Below are positions 1,113 through 25,864 of a stretch of 25,864 nucleotides of DNA, piece after piece. The stretch comes from a virus, in the IMG/VR virus record IMGVR_UViG_3300042507_004054, positions 1 through 25,864 of that record; one strand, given 5' to 3'. The position numbers were made by a program, and so were the translations under genes. Position 1 is the stretch's first letter. Each line of letters begins with the position of its first letter. Under the pieces are notes generated by a model that saw nothing but the letters and a program-made list of their open reading frames with translations, searched no databases and was not told the origin of the DNA.

Positions 1113-3035
1113 ATGAACATCACACGCACAGCTCGAAACGCCCGGCTCTTTCAGAATTTCACAAGGGTCAAGTACGGCGTTCCGTGGAAGCCCCTCATGT
1201 CCACGAAGGGGGACCCCATCGCCCCGAGGCCGGACTACCACATCGAGCGTGACATTCTCCGCAACTACGAGGCCCGAAGGCTCATTCCGAACAACCAGTT
1301 GAAGCCCTGGGAGGAGCACTTCAAGACCTTTGTCTCGCTCATCTGGGACGGCTCAAACACGAAGTACAGGTTCACCTGGAACCCCTACGCCGAACGCATC
1401 CTGGAGAACATCAGGAGCCATCGGTTCCTCGGGGTGTCCGGTCACGCTTCCTCCGGCAAGTCTCAGTTCGGGGCCATCTGGGCACTTGCCAACTTCCTCA
1501 TTGATCCTGAGAGCACAAAGGTGCTCGTCACCTCAACGTCTCTCAAGGAGTCCAGGATGCGCATCTGGGGCGTCATTGAGAAATACTGGGCGGAAGCCGA
1601 AAGCTACTTCAGCCAGTTCGGAGGAGGGATGCCAGGCAAGCTCGTCACATCGTCAGGCAGCATTGTAGGCACCATCAAGGGAAAGTCGGACGAACTCATC
1701 GGCCTTACTCTCGTTGCCGGGGGGAAGGGGAATGACGGGGATGCATCCACCAAGATTGGCTTCAAGGCCGGGAAGCTGATCCTGGTGGCGGACGAGCTTC
1801 CCCTCCTCACACCCAAGCTCTACGACGCCGCAACGAACTTGCTCTCCAATGACGGGTTCCAAATGATAGCAACAGGGAACCTGACATCAGTGTTCGATCC
1901 TTTCGGCCAATTCACTGAGCCGGAGAACGGTTGGGCCAGCATCACCGAGGAGGACATGGAGTGGCGCACGAAGATCGGGGGTTACTGCATCCGTTTTGAT
2001 GGTGAGAAATCTCCCAACGTCATTGCAGGCAGAGAGCTTTACAAAGGTCTGCTCACCCAGACGGGCTTGGACGAGATCCGTGCGAAGTTCGGCGAACGCT
2101 CTGCGGGTTACTACCGAATGGTCAAGTCATTCCCCTGCCCGACGGGGGCGATTGACACCATCTACTCCGAACCCGAGCTGGTGAGCCGACTGTGCGGCAA
2201 AGGCGACACCCCCTGGCTTCGCAAGCCGACGCCCATTGCCTTCCTTGACCCGTCCTTCTCCAAGGGAGGCGACGCCGCCGCAGCTAGTTTCGGGCTGATC
2301 GGTGACGCCCAGATCAACGGAGTCACCCTGCAAGTGCTCGAAAAGACGGACACCATTGACCTGATGATGAAGGTAGATGCCCAGCACAAGACGAAGGACC
2401 GCAACGAGCAGCTTGCCGACCTGTTCATCTTCGAGTGCGAGAAGCGCGGCATCGCCATCAGGGACAGGGGCGTTGACGCCACAGGGGGAGGCGACCCATT
2501 CGCTTCAATTCTGGCAATGAAGATGGGCCACGGCTTCCAACTTGTCAGCTTTGCCGGAGGAGCGTCGGACATGCCCGTGAGCGCCACGGACAAACGGAAG
2601 GGGAAAGACAGGTTTGTTAATCGTGTCTCGGAGCTTTGGTATGTCGGTAAAGACTTCGTATCTGGCGGACAGATTCGCGGCCTTGATCCAGCTACGATGC
2701 TGGAGCTATGCGCCCGTACGTATAAAGATGTAGGGAACAAGGTGTGCGTCGAGTCCAAGGAGGACATGAAGAAGCGAACAAGCGGACGCAGCCCCGACCG
2801 TGCCGACTCCTGGGTGGGGCTGATTGAAGTCGCCCGCAGGAATTACCGCTTCACGGCAGCCGCCAAAGCCAAGCCGCAGCAGCCAGCCAAGCCGAAGCCC
2901 TTTGACTGGTTCTCCGAAATTGAGAACCCCAGGAGGCCGGACTTCAGGGAGCAGTTCGTGGTCGGGGACGGATTTCACTCCCAGCAGCAGACATCCTGGG
3001 GAGAAGGGCTTGACAGTTCACCGAACATCTTCTAA
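1113..3035 (+). CDS. terL: Terminase large subunit
   Basis: The 640-residue motor of DNA packaging: an ATPase that pumps DNA into the prohead and a nuclease that cuts the concatemer. The Walker A motif is GHASSGKS with K116, and the Walker B motif is LILVADELP with D227-E228. The C-terminal RNase H-like nuclease has its acidic residues in IAFLDPSFSKGGDAA (D379), RGVDATGGGD (D455) and SPDRADSW (D562/D565). Both domains are complete. An N-terminal stretch of about 100 residues precedes the ATPase, and a Pro/Lys-rich tail of about 60 residues follows the nuclease. The start is five bases after the previous stop and has only a weak ribosome binding site. No small terminase is recognisable beside it. 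The glycan-related genes directly downstream are unusual neighbours for terL. Confidence 0.93.
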   Translation: MNITRTARNARLFQNFTRVKYGVPWKPLMSTKGDPIAPRPDYHIERDILRNYEARRLIPNNQLKPWEEHFKTFVSLIWDGSNTKYRFTWNPYAERILENIRSHRFLGVSGHASSGKSQFGAIWALANFLIDPESTKVLVTSTSLKESRMRIWGVIEKYWAEAESYFSQFGGGMPGKLVTSSGSIVGTIKGKSDELIGLTLVAGGKGNDGDASTKIGFKAGKLILVADELPLLTPKLYDAATNLLSNDGFQMIATGNLTSVFDPFGQFTEPENGWASITEEDMEWRTKIGGYCIRFDGEKSPNVIAGRELYKGLLTQTGLDEIRAKFGERSAGYYRMVKSFPCPTGAIDTIYSEPELVSRLCGKGDTPWLRKPTPIAFLDPSFSKGGDAAAASFGLIGDAQINGVTLQVLEKTDTIDLMMKVDAQHKTKDRNEQLADLFIFECEKRGIAIRDRGVDATGGGDPFASILAMKMGHGFQLVSFAGGASDMPVSATDKRKGKDRFVNRVSELWYVGKDFVSGGQIRGLDPATMLELCARTYKDVGNKVCVESKEDMKKRTSGRSPDRADSWVGLIEVARRNYRFTAAAKAKPQQPAKPKPFDWFSEIENPRRPDFREQFVVGDGFHSQQQTSWGEGLDSSPNIF

Positions 3036-6482: not shown

Positions 6483-7036
6483 CCGGGCGTGATGCCTAGC
6501 TTCTCGTCAACCCGCTTGAGCACGTCCAGCGGGATTGAAGCCTTGGAGGCAAGGTCGCATCCGCAGGCGAGGCAGGACTTCCTGTACACGTCCTCGGCGC
6601 GGGGAACCTTCCTGCCACCCATCAGCTCGGTGATCTGCTTCGCCAGCCACCCGCACCCGCCACAACTGATCTGGCCTTTCTGAGGGCAGACGGCGCAGAT
6701 GTCCAGACGGCGGCGGTGCTCCTCCTCGCTCACCAGTTCCGAGCCCTTGCGAAGCTCGTTCATCGTCCCCATGAAGCGTTTGATGTCGCTGCCGGTGAAC
6801 CGCCTCTTGTTGGAGTAGTCCTCATCGACAGGGATCTTCGGGTTGGCTGCAATGACCGCCTGTTCAAGCTCGTCAACCCAGGTGGCCGGGAAGGGGATGT
6901 TGCAAGCCTCCCGGTGGTCGCGGACGCGCTTCACAAAGCCGTTCCAGTTCCAGTCCTGGATTTTGACGCCCGTCTCAGGCTGGACGTATGTCCACATCCC
7001 GGCGACGGGGTGGTTTTTGTTTCGGATGCGCTTCAT
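6449..7036 (-). CDS. Cys-rich, probable zinc-ribbon phage protein
   Basis: A 195-residue protein starting at the ATGA overlap with the giant gene, with GGAG just upstream; a longer start at 7081 lies inside that gene and is less likely. The N-terminal 60 residues (WTYVQPETGVKIQDWNW ... FVKRVRDHREACNIPFP) look like a short module that precedes zinc-ribbon segments in many phage and bacterial proteins. The C-terminal part has cysteines at 114, 117, 125, 128, 155, 158, 160 and 190, in the order CAVC, CGGC, CLACGC and GCW, enough for one or two zinc sites. It is the last gene of the late operon. The function is unknown; binding nucleic acid or assisting assembly are both open. Confidence 0.65.
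   Translation of the reverse strand: MKRIRNKNHPVAGMWTYVQPETGVKIQDWNWNGFVKRVRDHREACNIPFPATWVDELEQAVIAANPKIPVDEDYSNKRRFTGSDIKRFMGTMNELRKGSELVSEEEHRRRLDICAVCPQKGQISCGGCGWLAKQITELMGGRKVPRAEDVYRKSCLACGCDLASKASIPLDVLKRVDEKLGITPGYEPGCWMREG
6470..6487. terminator. Hairpin at the junction of converging genes
   Basis: CCC-A-GGCT, loop CGT, AGCC-GGG forms a seven-pair stem with one bulged A. It spans the stop codon of the 79-residue gene, exactly where the two transcription units meet. There is no T-run on either side, so this is not a classical intrinsic terminator. A bidirectional stop is possible but unproven. Confidence 0.25.
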
Positions 7037-10000
7037 TTTTCTCCGAGGAGTTCGTTCACCTTGTTGACCATGTTGTCCCAAGCCGTCTCATCCTTCTCGG
7101 CGCTTTTTCCCTGGAACGTGGTGCGAACACCCGTGACTCCGAGGCCCATGAGCAGAGCGGCGGTGGCGGGGTCGTCCTGCTGGGACCCCAGGATTTCAAA
7201 AAGCTGAGAAACCTGAAGGGGGATCGGGGCTTTGATGATCTCGCTCTTGATGTCCGTCTTGTTGCCAACAGGGTCTTTGCCAGCAAGCGCATTGATGATG
7301 GACGCCGTGGTAGGGGCGAGCTTGAACCGCAGGAACGAACCAATCAAAGAGTCGCCAGACATGGCCCCGTAACTCGGAGCACCTTTCAGCGGGGAATCCC
7401 TGAACAGGTCGAGCGGGCGGTCTCCTTCACGGAGGGGCTTGAGCTTGCCTTTTGCCGTGACGGTTTCCCCGGTCAGAAGCCTCGTCAGGAACACCAACGG
7501 CTGCTGGAAACCGCCGAGCAGGTCAATCCGGTTGTCATCGTAGCGCAGCTTGCCCGCGTCAGTGGCGCGGAAGTCCAGCTTGATCGGCTCATCATCCTCA
7601 TCCTGACCAAGGGACAGCAGGAGCATGGCGATATACACCCCGAAGATGTACTTGGCGTACTGTTCGGCAATCAAAACCCTAGTCTGAGGAGACGCCCTCC
7701 ACAAAGGGAGTCCGAGAGCCATCGCAAAGCGACTGATGCCGAACCTCGCGGCGAAGATGAACGTGTTCAGGAACGGAGCCGCCTGACTGAGGAGCTGATC
7801 TGCCTTCTTCATCTTGAACACCCCACGACCCGTGGCGTTGTTGATGAGGTTGGCGAGGGACTCAAGGTTCTCCTGCGTGGACTGCTGCGGGGGGCGGAAG
7901 ATGCTCCCTTTAACGAGGCTTTCCTTCAGCACCTTGTAAGAGGTGACGCGGATCACGTCGAGGAGCGTCTTATAGGCACGCTCCGAACCGCGAACAAGAC
8001 CGCCGCCGAGCAGCTTGGGCCACTTAGCCACAAGGCGGGTGGCGTATTGCTCCTCCATCTTGGACAAAGGGGCGTTTGGCCCTGCGTCCATCGCCAGATA
8101 CAGACCGACGCGCTTCAATTCGCCGTCTTGGTATTCAGGTGTGTTGCGGAGGCGTTCCTGAACCTCTTTCTCCCCTTCTTCGGTTCGCATGGCGCGAAGC
8201 ATGTCGGGGATGGCCTTCATGGCGATCCTCGGATTGCTGAACAGAATGAAGTTACCCTGGTTGGCAATGGCAGACAAGTCAGCGGTCGCCGTGATGACGC
8301 GCTGGAGGCTGAACAAATCACCGATGAAGTCGAACGCCTTGCGGAGGCTGGAACGGTTTTTCAACCTCTCCTGAAGCATGATGTCCGCCACACCCATCTT
8401 GGCGTCGTCGAGCCTCTTGAGTTCGGACGCCAGCGCGTCGTTGAACTTGCGGGCTTCCTTGACTTTCGGCTTGTAAGTCCCGTTGCGGAGCTTGTCGGCC
8501 ATGTCCTCGTAATACTTGGTGCGTGTCTCAAGGTATTTGCGGTCGCGCTTGAGCTGCTCCATCACGGGGTCTTTGGCAGCCTCGGCCTTCGCCCTACGCA
8601 GGTCGAACATGACGGAGCGAAGGGAATTACGCTCTGCGCGGAGGTTCCTCAGCTTGGCGTTTTCGGTGAATGAAGGCTCGCGCCTCTTGGCGTCAATCTC
8701 GCCCCTGTTGATACGGTCGTTCAGGTCATTGATCGACTTTTCGGCGGATGCGATGGCGGCGTCCAGGAGGTCTGCCTCGGACTTCGTTTTCTTACCGAAC
8801 CTCTGCTCTTTGACCTCGGCAAGGCGGTCACGAAGAACTTTCTGCCTCGCCTTCAGGCGGATGATCGTCGGGGTGTTCTCAGCCTTTTGAGCAGGCTGAG
8901 GATAGAAGTTCGGGTCTTGAAGCTCCTTGATCTCGGTCTCAAGGCCCTTGATGCTGCGTTCAAGAATCCTCTCGGCACGCTCGTTGATCTCGTCCTGGGT
9001 GAGGTAGGGCTCGCCCTCAATTTCCAGACGGAGTTCGTCCATCGCCTGCTTGAGTGCGTCACGCTCGTTGAGAAGAACCTGAATCTGCTCGTTGATGATC
9101 GGATCAGATTCAGGCTTGGTGATGTCCTTGTTCGCCAGCTTTTGACGAAGGGAGACAATCTCCTTGGCAATCGACTTCATCCGAGCCTTGGCCTTGTCCT
9201 GGAACGACGGCTGCTTCGGCGGGTCAATCTCGTCCAGTTTTGCGCGAAGCACCTTTGCCCGATTTTCAAGGTCGGCGGCTTCGACGTCACGGGTCACTTC
9301 CTTGGTGGACTTGGCGTCACGCTTCTTGGCGGCGATCTGCCTGTCAAGGTCCGCGATGCTGTTCCGCAGCCTGGACTTCACGATGTCGAGGGGCGTCTTG
9401 ACCGCCCGATTGCCTGAGGCCATCTCCAGGCCGTTCTCCTTCATCAGGCGATACAGCTCCTTCTGGGCCGCACGGACGGCATCGGTGGCGGCGTCGCGCT
9501 GCTTGCCCGCACGAAGGGGGGCAATTTTGCGCTGGGCGTCCTCGATCTTGGAGGCGTATTGGGCCAGGGTGCGAAGCTCACGCACCTTCTTGGCAATGTC
9601 GCCGCCAGAAGGGAACAGGGGCCTTCCGTAGCCGGAGAAGCGGTCACGAACTTGACGTTCGGTGACGTCGGGAATCTGCTTCTGAATCTCCTCCGTGACG
9701 GACTTCATCACGTCCTCGACCTTGGTCATCCCCTTCTGCACACGGTCACGCACCATGAGGTAGATGTCACGGGCGGTCACGTCGTCAAAGGTGGCGAAAA
9801 CCTTGTCCTCGTCGGCTTCTTCGACATCGGCTTCCTCGTCGGACTCAGCAGCCTCGGTTTCCTTGCCTTCAGCTATGATGCCCTTCAAGTTGCTGTCGTA
9901 GTACGCCTGCGACGCCTGACGAATTTCTTCGAGCTGGTCATCCGTGTACTCAGTGAACTCAGGGTTTTCACCCCGCATTTCAATCATCCATTGAGCAGCG

Positions 10001-13000
10001 TTGCGGACGCCCTCGGCAATTTTGATCGCCCCGAGAAGAACGTCGTCAAAGGCGTCCAGCAAGGCGTTGAACAGGAAAGGGTCAGCCATGACCTTTTTCC
10101 TTCTTTCGGCGCGACGAGCACGGATCTTTTCTTTCCAGATGGCGAGCGACGATTTCCCTCCCTTTCCTGCCTTGGATGCAACTTTGACAGCCTCTGATGC
10201 CTCTTTGTTGGCCCTCTCAACCGCCTGCAACTCCTTGACGAAATTGGCTTTCATGTAGGCCATCATGTTGTCGATGGTCTCCTGAAGCCTTGCGTTCTCC
10301 TCACGGGCGGAGCGGAGTTCTTCAATTTTCTTCTCGGCGTCCAGGATGGCCTCGCTCAAGGTTCCGAGCTTTTTGGTCTGCTCCTCGTTGGGGGAGACGC
10401 CACCTGACGCCTGACGGAATTTGCGAACCAGACCGTCCTTTGAGAAGTCCTGCTCGATCAGCACGCGCATCAAACGAAGGGCGCGGCCAACGTCGCTGAT
10501 TCCAAGGGGGAGAGCCTGCTGGGCATCGTCGTAACGTGCGACGGCCTTCTGATAGTTGTCCTGAAGGGCTTGATTCTTCGGGTCTGCCGAGGCGGCGTTG
10601 TCGGCCATGTCCACGGCATTGCGACGGTTGGCGATCTCGATGCCCAGGATGGCGATTTCAAGCGAGTTGAGCGACCTCGGACGGGTGTTCACCATGTCCA
10701 CAAGGGCGTCGCCAACCAAGGGGTCTTTCTCAAACTCCTGCATGGCGAGGTCATACATCTGATCGTCGCCAATCGCCTTCTGGATGGGCTGCGCGAGCGG
10801 AGGAAGGCCGAGGCGTTTGCGCTCCTCGTCCATCGCGGAACGGCGCAGATCAACGACCTCGGCGGGACTGGCTTTCCCGGTAGGGGTGACTTTCGGCGTC
10901 TCCTGTTTTGGCTCGGAACGAGCAAGCGGGGGAGCGGCGACAGGTGCATCCGCAGGAGCGGCAGGCGCAACCTCACCCAGCACCTCGTTCACCTTGCTGG
11001 CGTCGTCCATCCCGGCGAACTTGCCGTCGTCCATTTTCTCCGCAACGGCGTAGTCGCGCACAGCGTTGTAAGCTGATTTGAGGTAGGGACGGACAGCTTC
11101 ACCGAATTCTTCAACCATCCTGGCGGAGAAGTCGGCAAAACCTTTGACTCCACCTTCAATGTAGAACCCAGCCTGATACACCGCAGCCTGGAAAAGCTCG
11201 GCGTCAAAGATGGGGACGTTGGCCTGACCGAGCTTACGGCGAAGAACCTTGCTCGCTTCCTTGCTTCCTTCCACGGTGAACAAGGTGTTGGTTGAACCGA
11301 ACGAAGCAGGAAGAGGTTTGGCTTCAGGTGCTTTTTCGCCTCGGATGTCAGCCGTTTCGGTTTTGAATCGCTGGGAAAGTGGGATCACGTTGCCGGACTC
11401 GTCGTAGGTTACTGGGTCGGCGGATTTGAGTTGTGCGGGATCAAAAACGACAACTTCTTCTATTTCTCCATTTTCAGTTGCGGTGAAGGCTGAATCTTTG
11501 CGATGACGTTTCAGTATTTCCAAATCTTTATCAGTGACAAGTATTGGGAAGGATTTGCTTAACCCGTAAATCTCCCTTTGCTCCTGGGCAAAATCAGTTC
11601 CGCTTGCTCCAAAAATGCCAACGGGGTTTAGCATTTTTGCGTAAAGGCGAATGGTTTTCATCCTGGCCTCTGTTGCAGCGTATTTCTCTTTTGAGATTTT
11701 ACGCTCGTATTCCAGCGTGTGCGCAATGTTCGGGCCTTTGCCTCGCGCTTTTTTGTCGAGATACAACTTTTCCGGCTCTAGCCATACACCTTTACCGCTC
11801 CAACCTGCATCGCTGAATGGTCGTTTGTATCCACCCATTTTGAACACAGTAAAGTCGCGGAACGTATGATGAACAAGGGGCAACGATGTGTCGTAATTAG
11901 CCTTCTCCGCCGCCTCATCCGCCATGCGCTGCGCCTTGGCAGCAGCTTCTGGATTGCGCTTAACCCACGCTTCAAAAACAGCCTTTCGTTCGTTTTGGGG
12001 TGAGCTTTTTAGCAGTTGAATTAAACTGTCGTTTCCGTTGTCCCCAGCCTCAACGGCAGCTAGGTATTCGGCGTCTTTCTCCAAGAGCTTTTGAAACTCA
12101 TCGGCCTTGATGGCGTCGTCCATCCCTTCAAACTCGGCGATGTCGCGCACGCCGTTGTAGAGTCCCTTGATGTAGGGGCGGATGCCTTCACCAAACTCCT
12201 TCACCATGCTAGCGGAGAAGTCGGCGATGGAGCGGACGCCTCCTTCGATCAGGAAGCCAGCGTAGTTGGTGGCGGCGGCAAACAGCTCAGGGTCAAACGC
12301 TGGGGCGTTTGTCTGCCCCAGTTTGCGCTTGATGATCTTGCTGGCCTCCTCGGCCTTCTCCTTGGTGAAGATGGTGTTGGTGGAGCCGAACTCGGGTTCC
12401 GAAGGAGTGACAACATCTTCGGGCTTTTTACGCCTATACGTTTTCCAAGTTTTGTCTGTGGGCAACGCCCCGTAAACTTTGCCCCCCATGCGTACCTCGG
12501 CTTCAAATGCCAGCTCTTGAAGTCTCGAAGCGTTTTCTTGAAAAGCTACGGACAGCTTGTCAGTTTTTTTGAAAGTTTGGTCAGGCGTTTCATTTCCACG
12601 CCCTGCTGCGATCATCTCTTCAGTGATCTCGTCGCGCCGCTTACGCAGCTTATCCCTTTCCTTGTTAATCTGACTGTTAGTCAGAGTAGAAGCGTCTGGC
12701 AAAACTTTCTTCTTTTTCGCCAAAGCCGCCCCCGGTTCACCCCCAGGGACGGCCTTCTCAGCCCTTACTTCTTCACCTTCACGGCCCCGCTGTGAAGCTC
12801 CTTCTTGAGCTTCGCCTTCTGGGCGGGTTTGAGGGGGCTGGCCTTGGACAGGAGGAGGCCCACCTGCTTCTTCGACTTGGTTTTGGATGCTGGCATCTTG
12901 GGGTTTTGGGGTTGTGGTTTGGGGGGCCGTCTCGGGTGACGGCAAAGGTGCAGAAAAAGGTTTCGCAAAAGGATTTACCAGCTCAACAGAATAGCCCTCC

Positions 13001-14787
13001 AGAGGTATTTCGGAATATTCTCGTCCTTCAAATTCAACGGGAGGTGAAAACCCTATAACCCAAGAGCCTTTGACTTTTTTTACGGACGAAACCTCACGCT
13101 CATAAGGGCCATAAAAGGTCGTAAATCGAAAATTATCACCAGGCTCTACTTCCTTCGACAGATCAGCATACACTGGGGCTTCGGCTTTTACACGATCTTC
13201 ATTAGCCTGAGCTTCCGTCAAAAGGGCATTATACTGGCGAAACACAACCTTGTCGTCCTCCGACATGTTTTCGAGGAGCTTCTTGGGGATAGCTTCTCTC
13301 TTGTCATTAGCGGCTTGAAACAACTTTCTGATTTCAAAGAGCTTTTGTCCTATGTCTAGGTTGGTCATCCCTTCACCCTGCTCCGTCACCGCCTCCGGCG
13401 CAACAGGTTTTTCTGTTTCTGGAAGAGGTTTTACTTCCTCCGCAGCCCCCGTGACGACCGGAGCCTCTGCAATCGGTGGCTCTGCTGATACAGGCTGCTC
13501 GGGGGCGGCGGTTTGTGTCTCACCTTCGACGGGCAATTCGGCTTGCTGTTCACTGATGGGGGGTGTTTGAGAGACAACGGGCGTCAGTCCTGCTGCTTCA
13601 GGCTCAGCAGGCGCTTCTGGTGCCGGTGCTGGCGGTTGTTCTGACACCACGGGCAGGTCCCGTGATTCCGGCACGACTTGTCGAACGCCCGGCTCTGGCG
13701 ATACGGTTGCTTGCGGCTTCTGCTCATCAGGTGCGGCGGGGGCGATGGGTTCTTCCTTCAGCACCGCAGCGGTGGCTGGCAGCACGTCTGCATTGGCTTC
13801 GACAGCGGCGGTGACTTTCTTCTCCAGCTCGGTGAGAACGGTCGGGAGGGGCATCTTACCGGATTCAACGGTGACTGCCTCGGCGGCGGAGACGGGGGCT
13901 TCTTCTTTCTGAGAAGAAGGCAGCAGAGTGCCGATGCCTCCAACAACACCCCCCGCAACGCCCCCGAGGGCTGCGGCTTCACCAGCACCTTCAAGGATGC
14001 CAGGAGTCTCGATGCCTGCGGGTGCCAACAGCTTTGTGGCTATGTTGCCGCCGACCTGGGCCAAGGATTCTTCCCCAGCCTCGGTGCCGATGGCCTTCAC
14101 AACCCCGCCAGCGCCTTTTTCAAGAGTGTCTCCAAGGAGCTTCCGAACAGGGGCAAGTTCAGTTCCAAGGCCGAACGTGTATTTCTCGGTGAGTCTTTCA
14201 ATCGCCCCACCAAGCAGAGCGCGAGAGTAAGCCGACAGACCTTCCATGCCATACTGTTCGGCGGCCTGACCGCCTTCACGGGCACCACTCAGGAAGCCAG
14301 AACCAAGGAGCGTCCGTCCGGCAAGCTGAGTTCCAGCAGCGGCAGCTTCGGCAGCGCCAAGACCGCGAGCCACAGCAGCGCCTTTGCCGAGAGCGCCTGC
14401 AACACCACCTGTGCCTAGCATACCGATTGCCTGGCCGACAGCCCCAGCGGCTTTCTGGGAGAACTCTTGCTGGTAGGCCGGGTTGACAGGGAGCATCTTT
14501 TCGATGTCCCGCTCAATGTCCGCGCCCACTTCTTTCAGCCCTGGGCCGATGACAGGCTCGGCAAGATAGCCAACACCCCCGATTGCGCCGGGGATGATGG
14601 ACAACGCCCCTCGCCCTGCACTCGACAAAGCGCTGCTGACACGGCTTTGGCCTGTGTCCTCAACTTCCGCCGCCTGGGATTGAGCGACTTGCTGGTAGTA
14701 AAGGGCAAGCTGGCGTGCCCCTTCGACATCCCCCGCAGCATCGGCGTTCTTTAAAGCTGCTGCGATCTGGTCAAGGTTTGCTGTCAT
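7033..14787 (-). CDS. Giant polyvalent virion protein with ART-like segment
   Basis: A 2584-residue protein of the 'large polyvalent protein' type, normally carried in the virion and ejected with the DNA. Residues 1-35 (LKNADAAGDVEGARQLALYY) match a common N-terminal motif of such proteins. About 50-290 is Gly/Ala-rich with hydrophobic stretches; 290-470 is Pro/Glu-rich and probably disordered. Two copies of one module begin at F800 and F1163 (FGSTNTIFT / FGSTNTLFT). Between them, about 965-1135, lies an ADP-ribosyltransferase-like segment (YDTSLPLVHHTFRDFTVF ... EVVVFDPAQLKSADP). About 1330-2140 is long charged coiled coil. About 2140-2560 (RVITATADLSAIANQGNF, GSERAYKTLL, INNATGRGVF) resembles LPD38, a name given from memory. 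I looked for single-subunit RNA polymerase motifs as in N4 and found none. Start ATG is coupled by ATGA to the gene before. Confidence 0.8.
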   Translation of the reverse strand: MTANLDQIAAALKNADAAGDVEGARQLALYYQQVAQSQAAEVEDTGQSRVSSALSSAGRGALSIIPGAIGGVGYLAEPVIGPGLKEVGADIERDIEKMLPVNPAYQQEFSQKAAGAVGQAIGMLGTGGVAGALGKGAAVARGLGAAEAAAAGTQLAGRTLLGSGFLSGAREGGQAAEQYGMEGLSAYSRALLGGAIERLTEKYTFGLGTELAPVRKLLGDTLEKGAGGVVKAIGTEAGEESLAQVGGNIATKLLAPAGIETPGILEGAGEAAALGGVAGGVVGGIGTLLPSSQKEEAPVSAAEAVTVESGKMPLPTVLTELEKKVTAAVEANADVLPATAAVLKEEPIAPAAPDEQKPQATVSPEPGVRQVVPESRDLPVVSEQPPAPAPEAPAEPEAAGLTPVVSQTPPISEQQAELPVEGETQTAAPEQPVSAEPPIAEAPVVTGAAEEVKPLPETEKPVAPEAVTEQGEGMTNLDIGQKLFEIRKLFQAANDKREAIPKKLLENMSEDDKVVFRQYNALLTEAQANEDRVKAEAPVYADLSKEVEPGDNFRFTTFYGPYEREVSSVKKVKGSWVIGFSPPVEFEGREYSEIPLEGYSVELVNPFAKPFSAPLPSPETAPQTTTPKPQDASIQNQVEEAGGPPPVQGQPPQTRPEGEAQEGASQRGREGEEVRAEKAVPGGEPGAALAKKKKVLPDASTLTNSQINKERDKLRKRRDEITEEMIAAGRGNETPDQTFKKTDKLSVAFQENASRLQELAFEAEVRMGGKVYGALPTDKTWKTYRRKKPEDVVTPSEPEFGSTNTIFTKEKAEEASKIIKRKLGQTNAPAFDPELFAAATNYAGFLIEGGVRSIADFSASMVKEFGEGIRPYIKGLYNGVRDIAEFEGMDDAIKADEFQKLLEKDAEYLAAVEAGDNGNDSLIQLLKSSPQNERKAVFEAWVKRNPEAAAKAQRMADEAAEKANYDTSLPLVHHTFRDFTVFKMGGYKRPFSDAGWSGKGVWLEPEKLYLDKKARGKGPNIAHTLEYERKISKEKYAATEARMKTIRLYAKMLNPVGIFGASGTDFAQEQREIYGLSKSFPILVTDKDLEILKRHRKDSAFTATENGEIEEVVVFDPAQLKSADPVTYDESGNVIPLSQRFKTETADIRGEKAPEAKPLPASFGSTNTLFTVEGSKEASKVLRRKLGQANVPIFDAELFQAAVYQAGFYIEGGVKGFADFSARMVEEFGEAVRPYLKSAYNAVRDYAVAEKMDDGKFAGMDDASKVNEVLGEVAPAAPADAPVAAPPLARSEPKQETPKVTPTGKASPAEVVDLRRSAMDEERKRLGLPPLAQPIQKAIGDDQMYDLAMQEFEKDPLVGDALVDMVNTRPRSLNSLEIAILGIEIANRRNAVDMADNAASADPKNQALQDNYQKAVARYDDAQQALPLGISDVGRALRLMRVLIEQDFSKDGLVRKFRQASGGVSPNEEQTKKLGTLSEAILDAEKKIEELRSAREENARLQETIDNMMAYMKANFVKELQAVERANKEASEAVKVASKAGKGGKSSLAIWKEKIRARRAERRKKVMADPFLFNALLDAFDDVLLGAIKIAEGVRNAAQWMIEMRGENPEFTEYTDDQLEEIRQASQAYYDSNLKGIIAEGKETEAAESDEEADVEEADEDKVFATFDDVTARDIYLMVRDRVQKGMTKVEDVMKSVTEEIQKQIPDVTERQVRDRFSGYGRPLFPSGGDIAKKVRELRTLAQYASKIEDAQRKIAPLRAGKQRDAATDAVRAAQKELYRLMKENGLEMASGNRAVKTPLDIVKSRLRNSIADLDRQIAAKKRDAKSTKEVTRDVEAADLENRAKVLRAKLDEIDPPKQPSFQDKAKARMKSIAKEIVSLRQKLANKDITKPESDPIINEQIQVLLNERDALKQAMDELRLEIEGEPYLTQDEINERAERILERSIKGLETEIKELQDPNFYPQPAQKAENTPTIIRLKARQKVLRDRLAEVKEQRFGKKTKSEADLLDAAIASAEKSINDLNDRINRGEIDAKRREPSFTENAKLRNLRAERNSLRSVMFDLRRAKAEAAKDPVMEQLKRDRKYLETRTKYYEDMADKLRNGTYKPKVKEARKFNDALASELKRLDDAKMGVADIMLQERLKNRSSLRKAFDFIGDLFSLQRVITATADLSAIANQGNFILFSNPRIAMKAIPDMLRAMRTEEGEKEVQERLRNTPEYQDGELKRVGLYLAMDAGPNAPLSKMEEQYATRLVAKWPKLLGGGLVRGSERAYKTLLDVIRVTSYKVLKESLVKGSIFRPPQQSTQENLESLANLINNATGRGVFKMKKADQLLSQAAPFLNTFIFAARFGISRFAMALGLPLWRASPQTRVLIAEQYAKYIFGVYIAMLLLSLGQDEDDEPIKLDFRATDAGKLRYDDNRIDLLGGFQQPLVFLTRLLTGETVTAKGKLKPLREGDRPLDLFRDSPLKGAPSYGAMSGDSLIGSFLRFKLAPTTASIINALAGKDPVGNKTDIKSEIIKAPIPLQVSQLFEILGSQQDDPATAALLMGLGVTGVRTTFQGKSAEKDETAWDNMVNKVNELLGEK
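10986..11303 (-). repeat. Module copy 2 inside the giant gene
   Basis: Encodes FGSTNTLFT, KEASKVLRRKLGQ, GFYIEGGVKGFADFSARMV, AVRPYLKSAYNAVRD and GMDDA, parallel to copy 1. The two copies lie on either side of the ADP-ribosyltransferase-like segment, so duplication and insertion may have occurred together. Confidence 0.75.
11383..11895 (-). other. ADP-ribosyltransferase-like segment in AT-richer DNA
   Basis: Codes for residues about 965-1135 of the giant protein. The order is a His in a beta strand (LVHHTFRDFTVF), then GKGVWLEPEKLYL, then a NPVGIFG segment, then an acidic strand EIEEVVVFDPAQLKSAD. This order resembles ART-PolyVal domains of phage polyvalent proteins, which use an H-Y-E type triad to transfer ADP-ribose from NAD. 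The exact catalytic residues cannot be fixed by eye. Counting sixty-base lines at 11461, 11521 and 11641 gives 38-42% GC, clearly below the GC-rich flanks. Confidence 0.5.
12090..12391 (-). repeat. Module copy 1 inside the giant gene
   Basis: Encodes FGSTNTIFT, EEASKIIKRKLGQ, GFLIEGGVRSIADFSASMV, GIRPYIKGLYNGVRD and GMDDA. It matches copy 2 (10986-11303) residue by residue along most of its length. The block resembles a module repeated in other phage polyvalent proteins ('HIEAGARxFxxYAxAMxxDxGDxxxPYLKxxY'). Confidence 0.75.
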
Positions 14788-19068: not shown

Positions 19069-19252
19069 TGGTGGCGATGAGGGGTGAGGGGCCTGGCAGA
19101 ACGGTCACATCAGTCGAGGCAGGCAGGAACCGGAACAGGTCGAAGGCGTTGCGTATCACCTCCTCCGTCCTGTCCATCAGGGCGTCAAACTGAATGGGGT
19201 CATCCTGCTTTCCGAACAGGGCGTCCTCATGCTCTTCCTGCTGCTCGGTCAT
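19058..19252 (-). CDS. Small hypothetical protein, 64 residues
   Basis: A start at 19252 (MTEQQEEHEDALFGKQDDPI) gives the ATGA overlap with the fibre-like gene. The sequence is acidic and helical in the first 45 residues, then ends with FLPASTDVTVLPGPSPLI. A longer frame from 19417 exists but lies entirely within the fibre gene and reads as shadow sequence. Not recognised; tail-fibre assembly help is a possible but unsupported role. Confidence 0.55.
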   Translation of the reverse strand: MTEQQEEHEDALFGKQDDPIQFDALMDRTEEVIRNAFDLFRFLPASTDVTVLPGPSPLIATNDF

Positions 19253-22200
19253 GCGGTGAAGGTGGATGTTGCCCCGACGGTCGGGCTGGTGGCGTTCACT
19301 GCGTTGTAGATGACAGCCCGGTATTGATAGACCTGCCCGACCGTCAGCCCGCTCACCGTGGAGTTGAGCGTGACATTGGAGAAGCCCGAGGTGCTCTGCG
19401 TGGCGGAGGTGAGCCACGTTGTCGAGGCGGACAGCTTGTATTCAAAGTAGGCAACCGCCGTGTCGTGGTTCGCCTTGAACGTTCCGCTCAGGTTCCTCGC
19501 CCCGACGCCCGCCGAGGAGTTACTGCCCGTTGTGCAGGTGGGCAGGCCGACACCGTTGCCGTAGAGCAGGATGGTGTAGGGGTTCTTGGTTCCCGGCACC
19601 GTGGACGAGACGCTCAAGGTGACAGGTCCTCGCTGGTTGGTGCCAGTCGGCGTGAACCTCACTGTCATCGTGGTCGTGCCGCCTGCCGCAAGGGTGGCGG
19701 CGGGGGCGCTGGTGATGCTCCATTCCCCACCGACCGAGGCGGAGATGGATGAAAGCGAGGCATTGCCCGTGTTGCGCAGGGTGAACACCCTGTCTGTGTT
19801 CTGCCCGGGCAGCGTCCCAGGATAGGTGACAGTCCCTCCATCCGCAATCGTGGTGCCGACCGGGTATTCAATCGCCAGATCCGCCACGGGCAGGCTGGAG
19901 AAGGCGACCGTCTCCTCAATGAATGAGGACGAACCATTGTTGCGTCCGCAGGGAACCAAGGCGTATGCGGACAGAGTTCCTGAGATGGGGAGGGATATTC
20001 CAGACAATTCCCATCCCCCGTCAATCCGCGTCCCTTGACCGAGTGTGACCGCCGTGGCCGAGCCTGTCGGGTAGTAACGGAACACGACCTGGGTCGTCTC
20101 AGGCAGCGTTCCTCCCCGCAACCATTGGACGTGCGCGGCGCTGACCACCGAAAGCACGGATGATGTGGCATCATTGTCGTTGTAGAGGCGGGCAAGGTTT
20201 CGCGGGGTTCCCCCTGCAAATGTCATGCCACCGCCTCCTACAAGAACCTTGCCATCCGTCTGCACAGCGAGCCCTATCAGGGTGCCTGACGCATCTGCGA
20301 TAAACGTCCCATCTTCCGCCCCGTCATCCGCAAGCAAGCGGGTAAGCGCCCCCGATGAAGCCGACCGCAGCACAAGAACCTTGGTGTCCGTCTGAACTAT
20401 CGTGCTCAATCCCGTGGACGAGTTTGACGCCGGTACAAAACTTGAATCCAGTGATCCGTCCGTGTTCAAGCGCCGGACAGACGTCGAGGCGTTTGTCGTG
20501 GACACGATGATTTTTCCATCTGCTTGCACGGATATGGTTTGAACCTGCCCCGCAAGCGTAAGCGTGGGGGACGTGAATGACGTGTCAAGCGACCCGTCTG
20601 TGTTCAGACGGACGAGGTAGTACATTGAAGAGCTTCCGTTGACGTAGAAAAGTCCGCCGACGAGTATTTTGTTGTCCTCTTGAAGTGCTATGGAAAGAAC
20701 CACCCCGGTTGTGAAAACGGCGGAGAAAGCCGAGTCAAACGTGCCCGATGACGTCAGCCTTGCCAGATGGGTCGTTCTCCCCCCGATAGCCGTGACGCTT
20801 CCGCCGACATACACACTCCCGTCTGAGGCTGGAACAATGGCGTTGATCCCTGTTCCCGTGGTGCTCAGTGAAAAGGACGAATCCAACGTCCCGTCAGCAT
20901 TCAAACGTGCGATACGAGGCTTCGACACGCCGTGAACAGTGGTGAAAGTTCCCCCGATAAGCGTTTTTCCAGAAGCAAGCAGCGCGTAGCACCTGACGTC
21001 CGCGTTCGCTCCTGAACCTGCTCTCGGCTGAAGGACGGCGCTGCTGTTGAGCTTGGCGTAGCGACCGACAGCAACTGCATTCAAGGTGGTGAAGTTGCCA
21101 AAAGGATATGAGTTGTCCGAAGAATCCGTCGCCAATCCGTTTGCGGTGCTGTTCGCCACAGGCACCCAGGTGTCGTCCAGCGTGCCCGGTCCCGGAGTGG
21201 CTTCACCCGTGATCGTGAAGGTGAACGGGTCTTCGTCAGCATCATCATTGTTAATCGTCACCGTGGCGGTCTTGCTGCCGCTGGTGGTGGGGTCGAACAC
21301 AAGCTGGAACGTGACGGACTGCCCCGGGGCAACCGGCGTGGTAGGCTGGGCTGTCAAAGACCACTGGTTCGCATTCGTGCCCGATATTTGAACATGGTTC
21401 GGGCCGTTGGTCAGGTTCAGGTCGGCCAGACCGACGTTGGAGATTGCCACCGTGATCGGCGTCGTGGTGCCAACCTGCGTGTCGTCAAAGTCAACGGTGC
21501 TCACACCGTCCTCCAGCACCGTGCCGTTGACGGACACCTCGATCTCAGGGTCAACGCTGAAGGAGACGACGGTTTCCTGGATGCCTTCCGAATGCGAGTC
21601 GGTCGTATATGCACGTCCGCGCATAAGTCCTGAAGTCGTCAGGGTCGTGTCAGGCACGAAATCCCAGCCCCCGGCGATGGCGGTCAGGGTTCCTGGAACG
21701 TCCGTGTAGGTCGTGCCGCCGTCCGTGCTCACGGCGAACTCGACCGTCTGCGTCTCCTGCATGGAACCGCCCCGCAGCCAGCGAACGAGGTCGGCGGTGA
21801 TGACGGAGAGGGTGGAGTCGGCCTCATCATTGTAGAGACGGGCGATAAAATTCCTCGCCGTTCCGCCGACCGATGTGAACAGCCCACCAATGATCGTCTT
21901 TCCGTCGCCCTGATTGGCCGTTGCATAGACAAGGGCGTTGGAGTTCGGGTTGTAGGCATCCTCGACAACGAGGTCGGACTGGATGCGGGCGATGCGGTTC
22001 CTCGCCACTGACGCCACCTGCGTGAAAGCACCTGCGACAATCGCCTTCCCGTCCGTCTGCGCCATACCGACGTAGCTGTCGTTGTTGCCGTTGACAGGGG
22101 GATTGACCGCAACGCCGTCCTGGCCCACAACGACGAGGTTCGACCTCGGGTGCTCGTCATACTGCGTGAAGTCACCCCCGGCCATGAGGTTCCCGTTGGA

Positions 22201-22308
22201 GAGGACGGACACCCACCTGCCAGCCGCGTTCAGACCGTAGTCCGGGGCGAAGGAGGTGTCCGTGGTGCCGTCCGAGTTGAGGATGGCGATGCGGTTCGGG
22301 ATGCTCAT
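19249..22308 (-). CDS. Fibre-like delta-60 beta-propeller protein, 1019 residues
   Basis: A probable receptor-binding or fibre protein assembled from secreted-type domains. It starts without signal peptide or virion-anchor domain, inside a propeller: blades 1-3 (residues 1-160, for example NSDGTTDTSF, GKAIVAGAF, GKTIIGGLFTSVGG). Then come an ARLYND ... VRWLRGG module (160-250), a choice-of-anchor-D/Ig-like domain (252-365, ending DEDPFTFTITGEA), seven delta-60 blades (about 370-705), a second ARLYND ... VQWLRGG module (705-805), a second Ig-like domain (809-915) and an Fn3-like C-terminus (930-1019). Delta-60 (DUF5122) and anchor-D domains are known in extracellular proteins of Verrucomicrobia and others; their use in a phage virion is inferred from operon position. 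No ribosome binding site precedes the ATG. Confidence 0.75.
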   Translation of the reverse strand: MSIPNRIAILNSDGTTDTSFAPDYGLNAAGRWVSVLSNGNLMAGGDFTQYDEHPRSNLVVVGQDGVAVNPPVNGNNDSYVGMAQTDGKAIVAGAFTQVASVARNRIARIQSDLVVEDAYNPNSNALVYATANQGDGKTIIGGLFTSVGGTARNFIARLYNDEADSTLSVITADLVRWLRGGSMQETQTVEFAVSTDGGTTYTDVPGTLTAIAGGWDFVPDTTLTTSGLMRGRAYTTDSHSEGIQETVVSFSVDPEIEVSVNGTVLEDGVSTVDFDDTQVGTTTPITVAISNVGLADLNLTNGPNHVQISGTNANQWSLTAQPTTPVAPGQSVTFQLVFDPTTSGSKTATVTINNDDADEDPFTFTITGEATPGPGTLDDTWVPVANSTANGLATDSSDNSYPFGNFTTLNAVAVGRYAKLNSSAVLQPRAGSGANADVRCYALLASGKTLIGGTFTTVHGVSKPRIARLNADGTLDSSFSLSTTGTGINAIVPASDGSVYVGGSVTAIGGRTTHLARLTSSGTFDSAFSAVFTTGVVLSIALQEDNKILVGGLFYVNGSSSMYYLVRLNTDGSLDTSFTSPTLTLAGQVQTISVQADGKIIVSTTNASTSVRRLNTDGSLDSSFVPASNSSTGLSTIVQTDTKVLVLRSASSGALTRLLADDGAEDGTFIADASGTLIGLAVQTDGKVLVGGGGMTFAGGTPRNLARLYNDNDATSSVLSVVSAAHVQWLRGGTLPETTQVVFRYYPTGSATAVTLGQGTRIDGGWELSGISLPISGTLSAYALVPCGRNNGSSSFIEETVAFSSLPVADLAIEYPVGTTIADGGTVTYPGTLPGQNTDRVFTLRNTGNASLSSISASVGGEWSITSAPAATLAAGGTTTMTVRFTPTGTNQRGPVTLSVSSTVPGTKNPYTILLYGNGVGLPTCTTGSNSSAGVGARNLSGTFKANHDTAVAYFEYKLSASTTWLTSATQSTSGFSNVTLNSTVSGLTVGQVYQYRAVIYNAVNATSPTVGATSTFTA

Positions 22309-23249: not shown

Positions 23250-23977
23250 AGGACGATCTTGAGGACTTCCCGAACAGCAAACGCCGGGTCACCCCATGCT
23301 CCTTCAATGTGGTGAACAAATCCGGATTTCTGAGCCTCCATTCTGCCATGGCATCCCTGCTTGTATGACTGCCCTGGGATGACCCCGACAGGCGACCCCC
23401 AAAGGACGATCAAAGGAACCCTGAGCAGGATGGCGAGATGCGCCAAACCGGAGTCCGTTGACACCACGAAGCGGGTTTTGAGCATGTGCGCGGCAATGTC
23501 TCGCAAATCCTCGACGATGGGGATGCCGCAGTCGAAGGACATATCAGCCTTGCCAACCGCCTTGATGGTCAATCCTGACGCCTGAAGGTCATGCGCCATG
23601 AGATTCCACCCTCCCCAGTCACGGTGACCGGAACTGTTCGGTTTCTTCCTTGGCACGGTCAGAACGTCCGTCCTGTCCGCCTGCCTGTCTGGAACCTGCA
23701 CGAAAAACCCTGGGGCCTCTTCGTACTCCCTGCTTATGCGGATGAATTCTGCCCCTGGATATGCACCTTTCAACGTCTCCACGACCGCCCGCTCACCGTG
23801 CCCGTCCAGACGCTCGTCAACATGCACAAAATCCGTGGCAGTCGGGAAAATAAACTCCCACGCCTCGGGGCAGCAGACCGTCAGCCTGTCGCATTTGATG
23901 GACGGCACCCTTCGAGCCTTGAAACTGATTACGTCCCCGAGGCAGAACCTCTCTGGAATCAGAACGACGTGCCTCAT
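23246..23977 (-). CDS. Glycosyltransferase family 9 (heptosyltransferase-like)
   Basis: A 243-residue protein, short for the family (commonly above 300). The N-terminal MRHVVLIPERFCLGDVISF matches the opening strand and 'GD' loop. TRFVVSTDSGLAHLAILLRV near residues 165-185 is a textbook GT9 donor loop with D-SG-x-x-H, followed by PLIVLWGSPVGVIPG. The key Asp and His are present, unlike in the two-domain protein at 3617. The reduced size suggests a trimmed acceptor-binding N-terminal domain. The ATG overlaps the stop of the Ser-Pro-ended fibre gene by four bases, so fibre and enzyme are made in step. Confidence 0.75.
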   Translation of the reverse strand: MRHVVLIPERFCLGDVISFKARRVPSIKCDRLTVCCPEAWEFIFPTATDFVHVDERLDGHGERAVVETLKGAYPGAEFIRISREYEEAPGFFVQVPDRQADRTDVLTVPRKKPNSSGHRDWGGWNLMAHDLQASGLTIKAVGKADMSFDCGIPIVEDLRDIAAHMLKTRFVVSTDSGLAHLAILLRVPLIVLWGSPVGVIPGQSYKQGCHGRMEAQKSGFVHHIEGAWGDPAFAVREVLKIVL

Positions 23978-25864
23978 GGCGTTGGCGACGGAGACGGGCT
24001 AGGTGAAGGGCTCGGGCTGGGAGACGGGGAAGGCGAAGGAGACGGAGAGGGACTTGGCGATGGAGTCGGCGTCGGGGTAGGACTTGGCGAGGGGCTTGGG
24101 CTAGGCGACGGGCTAGGTGACGGACTTGGGCTCGGAGAAGGCGAAGGACTTGGCGACGGACTCGGAGAAGGCGAAGGACTTGGCGACGGACTTGGCGACG
24201 GGGAAGGACTTGGCGACGGGGAAGGACTTGGCGACGGGGAAGGACTCGGGCTAGGAGAAGGTGTCGGACTCGGCGTGGGTGACGGGGTAGGTGAGGCATC
24301 GAACCAATCCCCCACCACAACAACCCTGCCATCATTCAAAATCTGGACGCCATAGACAGACCCCGGGCTGGCGACCGAACCGATCTCACTGGTGAAAGTG
24401 CCGTCCAGGGTGCCGTCGGTGTTCAAACGTGCCAGATACGCCTTGGCCCCTCCGCCGATGTTGAGGAAGTCACCCCCGACAATGACCTTGCCGTCGTCCT
24501 GGATGGCGAGGGCGTTCACATCACCATCCGCGTTCGGGTTGAACCCCGCGTCGATGGCACCCGTGTCATCCACCCGGGCGATGTAGTTCCTTGCGTTCCC
24601 TGCGACCGACGTGAACCCGCCGCCAAGGATGATGCTGCCGTCGTCCTGGATGGCGACACAGTTTACCGTGCTGTTGGTTCCAGGGTTGAACGTGGCATCC
24701 AGGGTGCCGTCGGTTTCAAGCCGGGCGATGTAGGCCCTGGAGCCACCGGCAATCGTGCCGAACTGACCGCCGACAACGGCCTTGCCATCGGGCTGAATCG
24801 CCACGGCGAACACCGCCCCGTCGGCGTTCGGATTGTAGGCCAGGTCAACGGCCCCCGGCGCTGTCGGGCTTTGGGAAACGCCCGTCAGATTGACCGTGAA
24901 GGGGTTCTCGTCGGCGTCCGTGCTGGTGATGGACAACGTGGCGGTGCGCGTGTCCGTGCTGCTGGAGTTCACCACCGGGTCAAAGGTGACGGTGAAATCC
25001 ACATACGCCCCTGCCGCAAGCTCAGTCACCGTGATTGGCACCGAGAACGTGTAGTCCTCAGCGTTTGACCCTGTGATGCTGCCCGCAATGCTGCGAAGCG
25101 TGGTGTTGCCGACATTACGCAGGCGAAACACCTTGTCCGCGCTGCCTGTGGTGACGGTGCCGAAGTTGATCGTGCTTGACCCGTCAACAAGGATGGTTCC
25201 GGCAGGTTGTTCGACCTGAATCTCGGGGGCGACCCCGATACCCGTCAAAACGATGTTGTATGGGCTGGATGGATCGTTTGACACGATCGGCAGTGTGGTC
25301 GTCTTGCTTCCAATGGACGTTGGGTTGAATTGAACGGTAAACTCAAACGTGCTGCCGGGAGAAAGCGTCGTCGGCATCGCACTGATCGTGAACATGCCGG
25401 AGTCCCCTCCACTAGGTATAGCCGAAAAATTTTGAAGGGTTTCAAGGCCAACGCTGTTGAGCGCCAAAGTCACCGAGATCGACGAACCCACTTCCGCAGA
25501 GCCTACGGCTAGGGTGTTGTTCGGCGGGCTTGAGGGGATTTCTTGACCGCCCTGCGTCACCAGAAGCTCAGGCGAAGGCTCCGCAAGGCAGATGCAGATG
25601 TTGGAGATGACTCCGCCACGGCTGACCCGTGCGTAGTAGACCTGCCCTCTCACCGCGCCAATTACTGGAGTGCTGGTGCCCGTCACCGTGAGGTTCTGGT
25701 ATCCTGTCAGGAAGTTCCCAGCGAACGTCGGGTCAGTGGACACGTCGAGCTTGATCGTGCCTGCGGGCACCGTGCTCGCAATCGCCCACGTCAGGGTGAA
25801 CGTCGTAGAGGTCGCCGATGTCTGACGAAGGGTGATGCCCGTAGCCACGCCCGTCGTGCTGGGG
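23974..25864 (-). CDS. Fibre-like protein with Ser-Pro tail (5' end outside window)
   Basis: The frame is open through the right edge. A GTG at 25848 exists, but the codons above it continue a beta domain, so the true start is probably upstream. Counting from 25848: Fn3-like domain (1-88, ending VYYARVSRGG), choice-of-anchor-D/Ig-like domain (92-205), a second one (208-325, ending DENPFTVNLTGVS), four delta-60 blades (about 330-517: GKAVVGGQF, GSIILGGGFTSVAG, GKVIVGGDF, GRVVVVGDWFDA), then 53 Ser/Thr-Pro pairs to the stop. No C-terminal tip or trimerisation domain is present, odd for a fibre. Location upstream of the late genes suggests virion attachment through the missing N-terminus (inference). 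Confidence 0.7.
   Translation of the reverse strand, partial: PSTTGVATGITLRQTSATSTTFTLTWAIASTVPAGTIKLDVSTDPTFAGNFLTGYQNLTVTGTSTPVIGAVRGQVYYARVSRGGVISNICICLAEPSPELLVTQGGQEIPSSPPNNTLAVGSAEVGSSISVTLALNSVGLETLQNFSAIPSGGDSGMFTISAMPTTLSPGSTFEFTVQFNPTSIGSKTTTLPIVSNDPSSPYNIVLTGIGVAPEIQVEQPAGTILVDGSSTINFGTVTTGSADKVFRLRNVGNTTLRSIAGSITGSNAEDYTFSVPITVTELAAGAYVDFTVTFDPVVNSSSTDTRTATLSITSTDADENPFTVNLTGVSQSPTAPGAVDLAYNPNADGAVFAVAIQPDGKAVVGGQFGTIAGGSRAYIARLETDGTLDATFNPGTNSTVNCVAIQDDGSIILGGGFTSVAGNARNYIARVDDTGAIDAGFNPNADGDVNALAIQDDGKVIVGGDFLNIGGGAKAYLARLNTDGTLDGTFTSEIGSVASPGSVYGVQILNDGRVVVVGDWFDASPTPSPTPSPTPSPSPSPSPSPSPSPSPSPSPSPSPSPSPSPSPSPSPSPSPSPSPSPSPSPSPSPSPSPSPTPTPTPSPSPSPSPSPSPSPSPSPSPSPSPSPTP
23977..24294 (-). 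repeat. Hexanucleotide tract coding 53 Ser/Thr-Pro dipeptides
   Basis: Exactly 106 codons of [Ser or Thr]-Pro end the fibre-like gene and stop directly at TGA. The six-base unit, with larger repeated blocks, is prone to length change by slippage. Every gain or loss of one unit keeps the frame, so the tail length could vary between particles' genomes without breaking the gene. Confidence 0.95.

What the first reader, a model, noticed from the sequence alone, without database searches (positions are those of the whole stretch)
10986..12391. ART-like segment flanked by a duplicated module in AT-richer DNA
Two copies of the same module, about 100 residues each, bracket an ADP-ribosyltransferase-like region. 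The DNA between them drops to about 40% GC in lines I counted, against GC-rich flanks. This looks like recent acquisition of a toxin-like or host-modifying activity into a virion protein that enters the cell with the DNA.
Basis: partly seen in the sequence, partly recalled or inferred. Interest (0 to 1): 0.7.

Follow-up and report, generated by a model that had tools for sequence, protein, structure and literature searches.

The report
Swappable enzyme cassette in phage polyprotein
Inside a giant phage protein sits an exchangeable plug-in segment that carries a predicted ADP-ribosyltransferase; near-identical end sequences appear to let unrelated phages swap such segments, which would be a fast way to change the tools a phage may inject into a bacterium.

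Summary
Polyprotein P0001 (2584 aa, minus strand 7033-14787) has two ~100-aa modules (57-60% identical) bracketing an AT-rich (45% GC) ART-like segment. The close relative L075 shows the empty site: one module, no ART. The window carries 1,113 extra nucleotides (cassette plus module 2) between 22-bp imperfect direct repeats.

The module is not the general bracket. The real unit is residues 904-1149: a conserved GC-rich leader, a variable AT-rich core, and a conserved GC-rich tail. The window's core occurs, 78-81% identical, in four otherwise unrelated phage polyproteins. Conversely, six pairs of related polyproteins carry different cores, switched at leader and tail. At least 48 core families use these handles, and 46 of 47 measured are AT-richer than their own ORF. 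At least three cores are not ART-PolyVal by profile.

The window core is an ART domain related to ART-PolyVal (PF18760): below Pfam's cut-off itself, but its 78% relative passes; the AlphaFold model matches viral ART-PolyVal structures; H973, W1002 and D1098 occupy the catalytic positions.

Cassette exchange is shown by comparison. Virion ejection, catalysis and target are inferred. Whether the window gained or L075 lost the insert is open. New variant of the known polyvalent-protein theme.

The parts
7033..14787 (-). Polyvalent-type phage polyprotein P0001, 2584 aa
   Evidence: Open frame; C-terminal 684 aa 97% identical to L075
12097..12390 (-). Module copy 1 (residues 800-897), the resident copy
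   Evidence: 84% identical to the single module of L075; related modules in DarB-like/structural polyproteins of phages
10992..12104 (-). 1,113-nt segment present in the window and absent from L075: linker, ART cassette, module copy 2
   Evidence: W/L075 comparison
12105..12126 (-). Left 22-bp direct repeat GGGATGGACGACGCCATCAAGG at the end of module 1
10992..11013 (-). Right 22-bp direct repeat GGGATGGACGACGCCAGCAAGG at the end of module 2; L075 has a single copy
11899..12078 (-). Cassette leader (5' handle), residues 904-963, DAEYLAAVEAGD...AQRMADEAAEKANY
   Evidence: DNA 86-89% identical to leaders in L003, L007, L008, whose flanks are unrelated; 66 viral loci carry a leader relative
11434..11898 (-). 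Variable core with predicted ADP-ribosyltransferase domain, residues 964-1118
   Evidence: PF18760 E 1.8e-4 to 3.7e-4; AlphaFold pLDDT 82.6, pTM 0.79; Foldseek matches to viral ART-PolyVal models
11341..11433 (-). Cassette tail (3' handle), residues 1119-1149, KSADPVTYDESGNVIPLSQRF
   Evidence: DNA 90% identical to L007 over 24 codons while the cores differ; alignments of swap pairs resume here
11869..11871 (-). H973, predicted strand-1 catalytic histidine
   Evidence: H in 44 of 46 cores
11782..11784 (-). W1002, position of the catalytic tyrosine (W 13, F 13, Y 12 of 46)
11494..11496 (-). D1098, predicted strand-5 catalytic aspartate (D in 33 of 46)
10981..11301 (-). Module copy 2 (residues 1163-1269), only in the window
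   Evidence: 62% identical to the L075 module against 84% for copy 1
12397..12767 (-). Variable slot B: non-homologous to L075; GC 0.485
12950..13364 (-). Variable slot A: non-homologous to L075; GC 0.46

Best explanation
The segment is an exchangeable effector cassette in a phage polyvalent protein. The cassette has three parts: a GC-rich conserved leader (about 60 residues in the full-length form, about 30 in the short form), an AT-rich variable core, and a GC-rich conserved tail ending in DPVTYDxxGNVIPLSQRF. Leader and tail DNA are alike enough between unrelated phages to serve as homology arms, so recombination in them replaces the core in frame without touching the rest of the polyprotein (shown by comparison; the recombinase is inferred). 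In the window lineage the slot lies between two copies of a DarB-polyprotein module. The 1,113-nt difference from L075 has module ends (22-bp repeats) at both sides, so it was gained, or in L075 lost, by recombination between module ends. The core is an ART domain of the ART-PolyVal type with H973, W1002 and D1098. Most likely the polyprotein is packaged, enters the host with the DNA, and the ART domain uses NAD+ to modify a host target, possibly a defence component (inferred). Rapid core exchange would then change this activity between phages.
For: Same core, different surroundings: the window core recurs at 78-81% identity in L003/L009, L004, L005 and L006/L066, with no flank homology in the 900 nt either side. 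Same surroundings, different core: L006/L014 (flanks 100% and 99.8% over ~900 nt), L003/L008 (96-98% upstream), L003/L023 (97% upstream), L052/L058 (90%/90%), L030/L064 and L036/L071, each with alignment ending in the leader and resuming in the tail. Empty site in L075. Between W and L003, synonymous codons match 40/52 in the leader but 45/122 in the core (p 1.2e-6), so leader and core have different histories. Fourfold sites in the handles agree 0.50 between loci against 0.27 expected. GC3 is 0.74 in the leader, 0.45 in the core and 0.75 in the tail; 46 of 47 core families lie below their own ORF in GC, by 8.6 points on average. ART: 41 of 46 cores match PF18760; the 78% relative L009 passes the Pfam cut-off; model pLDDT 82.6 and Foldseek E 1.4e-11 to an ART-PolyVal protein.
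Against: The window core alone is below Pfam's gathering score (22.7 against 31.2 bits). Matches to solved ART structures are weak (best E 0.014, TM about 0.35). The strand-2 tyrosine is a tryptophan. Handles may be shared because they are parts of the same protein unit rather than for recombination. Sequences are metagenome contigs; reads were not available to exclude chimeric assembly. Polarity of the W/L075 difference is unknown. No direct evidence for packaging or NAD+ chemistry.
Confidence: 0.78

Rival explanations
1. Leader and tail are simply the conserved edges of one old protein domain family (ART plus linkers). Cores differ because ART domains evolve fast, with no cassette exchange.
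For: Most cores (41 of 46) are ART-PolyVal relatives, and QIKSADP belongs to the last strand and helix region of the fold.
Against: L006 and L014 share 99.8-100% identical flanks but carry unrelated cores (ART against a weakly ParB-like sequence), which fast divergence cannot give. Leader and core of W/L003 differ in synonymous divergence. Non-ART-PolyVal cores L040 and L074 use the same handles.
Confidence: 0.1
2. The arrangement module-ART-module is ancestral and L075 lost the cassette and module 2 by recombination between module copies; nothing was newly acquired in the window.
For: Such a deletion between the 22-bp repeats would leave exactly the junction seen in L075.
Against: The core is far below the ORF in GC, which suggests foreign origin, though not when. 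L075's single module follows copy 1 along nearly its whole length, which a crossover at the module ends would also give, so this does not decide. No outgroup was found.
Confidence: 0.35
3. The junctions are chimeric metagenome assemblies joined at conserved handles.
For: All carriers are metagenome contigs, and the handles are repeated sequences.
Against: Swap-pair handles carry several mismatches, whereas assembler joins need exact k-mers; identical cassettes with identical flanks occur in independent metagenomes (L012/L013, L015/L016, L023/L024). The window core is only about 69% identical in DNA to its relative in L003.
Confidence: 0.04
4. The ART-like core is catalytically dead and serves as a structural or binding spacer.
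For: Y is replaced by W at the strand-2 position; weak match to solved ART structures.
Against: H973 and D1098 are kept in all aligned members of this core family; cores with W at this position pass Pfam's cut-off for ART-PolyVal (L037, L048, L050).
Confidence: 0.2

Closest known systems
Polyvalent proteins of phages and conjugative elements (Iyer et al. 2017, PMC5512222)
   Same: Very large multidomain phage protein with an ART domain; mosaic domain content; predicted to be packaged and delivered into the host.
   Different: That paper, in the sections read, reports mosaicism (Helicobacter jhp1044) and possible cassettes (Verrucomicrobium kinase locus), but not the conserved leader/tail handles, the GC step at them, or swaps between near-identical polyproteins.
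ART-PolyVal domain (Pfam PF18760)
   Same: Profile match over positions 38-134 of 140; H and D positions; viral ART-PolyVal models are the best fold matches.
   Different: Window core below the gathering score; W in place of Y; N-terminal part unmatched by the profile.
Polymorphic toxins with exchangeable C-terminal toxin domains
   Same: A constant carrier with exchangeable effector domains joined at a conserved boundary (general knowledge; mentioned in PMC5512222).
   Different: Here the effector is internal, so two handles are needed, and the carrier is a probable virion protein.
T4 Alt, a head-packaged ADP-ribosyltransferase
   Same: Proposed mode of use: injected ART that modifies host proteins (described in PMC5512222).
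   Different: Alt has an R-S-E active site and is not part of a polyvalent protein.

Membership tests
ART-PolyVal (PF18760) | Curated gathering score (31.2 bits) | tested here: not met
   Window core 22.7 bits; its 78% relative L009 reaches 33.9, L066 30.2
ART-PolyVal (PF18760) | ART fold | tested here: met
   AlphaFold pLDDT 82.6, pTM 0.79; Foldseek to viral ART-PolyVal proteins E 1.4e-11; solved ARTs only weakly
ART-PolyVal (PF18760) | H-Y-D active site (PMC5512222) | tested here: inconclusive
   H973 and D1098 present; W1002 at the Y position; W also in L037, L048, L050, which pass the cut-off
ART-PolyVal (PF18760) | NAD+-dependent ADP-ribosyl transfer | not testable with these tools
   Needs biochemistry
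Polyvalent protein | Large multidomain protein of a phage or conjugative element | tested here: met
   2584 aa on a virus record with terminase large subunit at 1113-3035
Polyvalent protein | Encoded among virion genes, packaged and delivered | tested here: inconclusive
   In L007 the polyprotein gene follows tail and internal virion protein genes; window neighbours have homologues next to other polyproteins; packaging not tested
Polyvalent protein | Several distinct effector or LPD domains recognised by profile | tested here: inconclusive
   Only the ART match in Pfam is meaningful; a DarB-type module by PHROGs

The most novel reading that the evidence does not exclude
Leader and tail are a dedicated recombination platform: a domain-level cassette system working inside a single reading frame, with a shared pool of AT-rich effector cores that move between unrelated phages through two GC-rich handles and can stand in tandem (three in L047), perhaps driven by phage-encoded annealing recombinases.
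Probability: 0.3. Interest if true: 0.8.

Novelty: new variant of a known kind. Interest (0 to 1): 0.58.

Why it matters
If right, the handles are a search key: any sequence between them is a candidate effector, so dozens of unknown domains can be collected without prior homology. It also gives natural experiments (L006/L014, L003/L008/L023) in which related phage polyproteins differ by their effector, making the question of what these domains do in early infection testable. It would help explain how phage polyvalent proteins become so mosaic.

Tried and rejected
tblastn of the cassette, the leader and the C-terminal half against 50,697 phage records gave nothing, so isolates could not be compared. 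Sequence search of solved structures with the core profile: no hit. Search for relatives of module 2 and of slot B in viral contigs: none. More relatives of the window polyprotein to fix polarity: only L075. Genome contigs: only one distant relative, in an Anaerolineae MAG contig. AlphaFold of the module: pLDDT 54.8, helical, too poor for a fold search. Idea that the modules are the general bracket of the ART unit: rejected, as no other cassette locus has the module. Idea that module 2 is a recent duplicate of module 1: rejected, as the copies are only about 60% identical while copy 1 is 84% identical to L075. Pfam on slots A and B of both phages: nothing significant. Literature: three further searches for cassette swapping in phage polyproteins gave no description of it.

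Full report
The observation. The window is an IMG/VR virus record. A 7,755-nt gene on the minus strand encodes a 2584-aa protein. Residues 800-897 and 1163-1269 are two copies of one module, 57-60% identical (score 320 against a shuffle maximum of 49). Between them lies an AT-rich segment; its core (residues 964-1118) has 45.4% GC, against 62% in the N-terminal and 58.5% in the C-terminal part. No window of equal length elsewhere in the gene is as low.

The empty site. A search with the C-terminal part found one close relative, L075 (96% identical there). L075 has a single module that follows window copy 1 and then runs straight into the sequence that follows window copy 2. The window therefore has 1,113 extra nucleotides, or L075 lacks them. 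They comprise a linker, the ART segment and module 2, and are bounded by a 22-bp direct repeat with one mismatch (GGGATGGACGACGCCA[T/G]CAAGG); L075 has one copy. Copy 2 is not a young duplicate of copy 1. Two further stretches upstream (12397-12767 and 12950-13364) are unrelated between the two phages, and they are the other two GC dips of the gene. Gain or loss cannot be decided without an outgroup.

The mobile unit is smaller than the bracket. Residues 904-1149 occur at 76-79% identity in L003, L004, L005 and L006, inside polyproteins with no flank homology to the window's or to each other's at that site. L007 and L008 share the leader DNA (86-89%) and the tail DNA (77-89%) but have different cores. 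A search with the leader gave 66 loci, and 62 contigs hold an exact match to a degenerate leader pattern. The cores between leader and tail form 48 families at 60% identity. Some proteins hold two or three cassettes in a row (L047 has three).

Natural swaps. Pairs with related flanks but different cores are L006/L014, L003/L008, L003/L023, L052/L058, L030/L064 and L036/L071. In each, the alignment stops in the leader and resumes in the tail. In L006/L014 about 900 nt on each side are 100% and 99.8% identical, while one core is the window-type ART and the other is weakly ParB-like (phrog_18056, E 0.008). Two other cores, L040 and L074, match a phrog annotated 'ParB C-terminal domain' (E 4.5e-23 and 1.1e-21). 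The handles are therefore not tied to ART cores.

DNA evidence for separate histories. Between the window and L003, codons for the same amino acid are identical in 40 of 52 cases in the leader but 45 of 122 in the core (Fisher p 1.2e-6). Across loci with different cores, fourfold sites in the handles agree in 50% of comparisons against 27% expected from the codon usage of the same ORFs; some of these loci share ancestry, so this figure is indicative. GC3 is 0.74 in the leader, 0.45 in the core and 0.75 in the tail. Of 47 core families, 46 have lower GC than the rest of their ORF (mean -8.6 points, Wilcoxon p 7e-14), and in 28 of 48 the core is the lowest-GC stretch of its ORF.

What the core is. 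Pfam's ART-PolyVal matches the window core at E 1.8e-4, below the curated cut-off. The 78% identical core of L009 passes it (33.9 bits), and 41 of 46 aligned cores match the family at E up to 0.01. AlphaFold on the 46-sequence alignment gives pLDDT 82.6 and pTM 0.79. Foldseek finds viral ART-PolyVal proteins (best E 1.4e-11). Among solved structures the best are ART proteins (MbcT toxin, PARP4, tankyrases), but weakly (E from 0.014). H973 and D1098 fit the H and D of the H-Y-D active site described for these domains (PMC5512222). The Y position holds W1002, as in several cores that pass the Pfam cut-off. I call it an ART domain related to ART-PolyVal; formal membership of the window sequence itself misses the Pfam score.

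Function. In L007 the polyprotein gene lies downstream of tail and internal virion protein genes. The gene just upstream of the window polyprotein has homologues just upstream of the L003 and L005 polyproteins. The module occurs in very large phage proteins annotated as structural or DarB-like antirestriction. Together with published argument on polyvalent proteins and T4 Alt this makes packaging and ejection likely, but it is inference. The target of the ART is unknown.

Known and new. Mosaic polyvalent proteins and ART domains in them are known. In the papers searched I found no account of conserved leader/tail handles with a GC step, or of core swaps between near-identical polyproteins. Only open-licence papers could be searched. 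I therefore rate this a new variant of a known kind.

Noticed in passing
12397-12767 and 12950-13364: Two more low-GC slots in the same gene where window and L075 carry unrelated sequences of similar length; no Pfam match in either.
   Followed up: partly
L047 (leaders at residues 1084, 1236, 1430), also L032, L033, L059, L061, L086, L092, L117: Two or three handle-bounded cassettes within one polyprotein.
   Followed up: partly
L040:6043-6615, L074:2740-3309: Handle-bounded cores matching phrog_2579 (annotated ParB C-terminal domain) rather than ART-PolyVal; fold unknown.
   Followed up: partly
L039, L041, L046 cores: Handle-bounded cores without a significant match in Pfam or PHROGs: candidate unknown effectors.
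   Followed up: no
19249-22308 and 23974-25848, minus strand: Two large proteins that both carry DUF5122 beta-propeller repeats and ASH/HYDIN-type Ig domains; possibly adsorption proteins.
   Followed up: no
L077 (6,991-bp contig of an Anaerolineae MAG): A distant cassette relative with two tails in a contig binned to a bacterial genome; prophage or contaminant.
   Followed up: no
1113-3035, plus strand: Terminase large subunit by PHROGs (phrog_2, E 1.4e-11); the record is probably a partial tailed-phage genome.
   Followed up: partly
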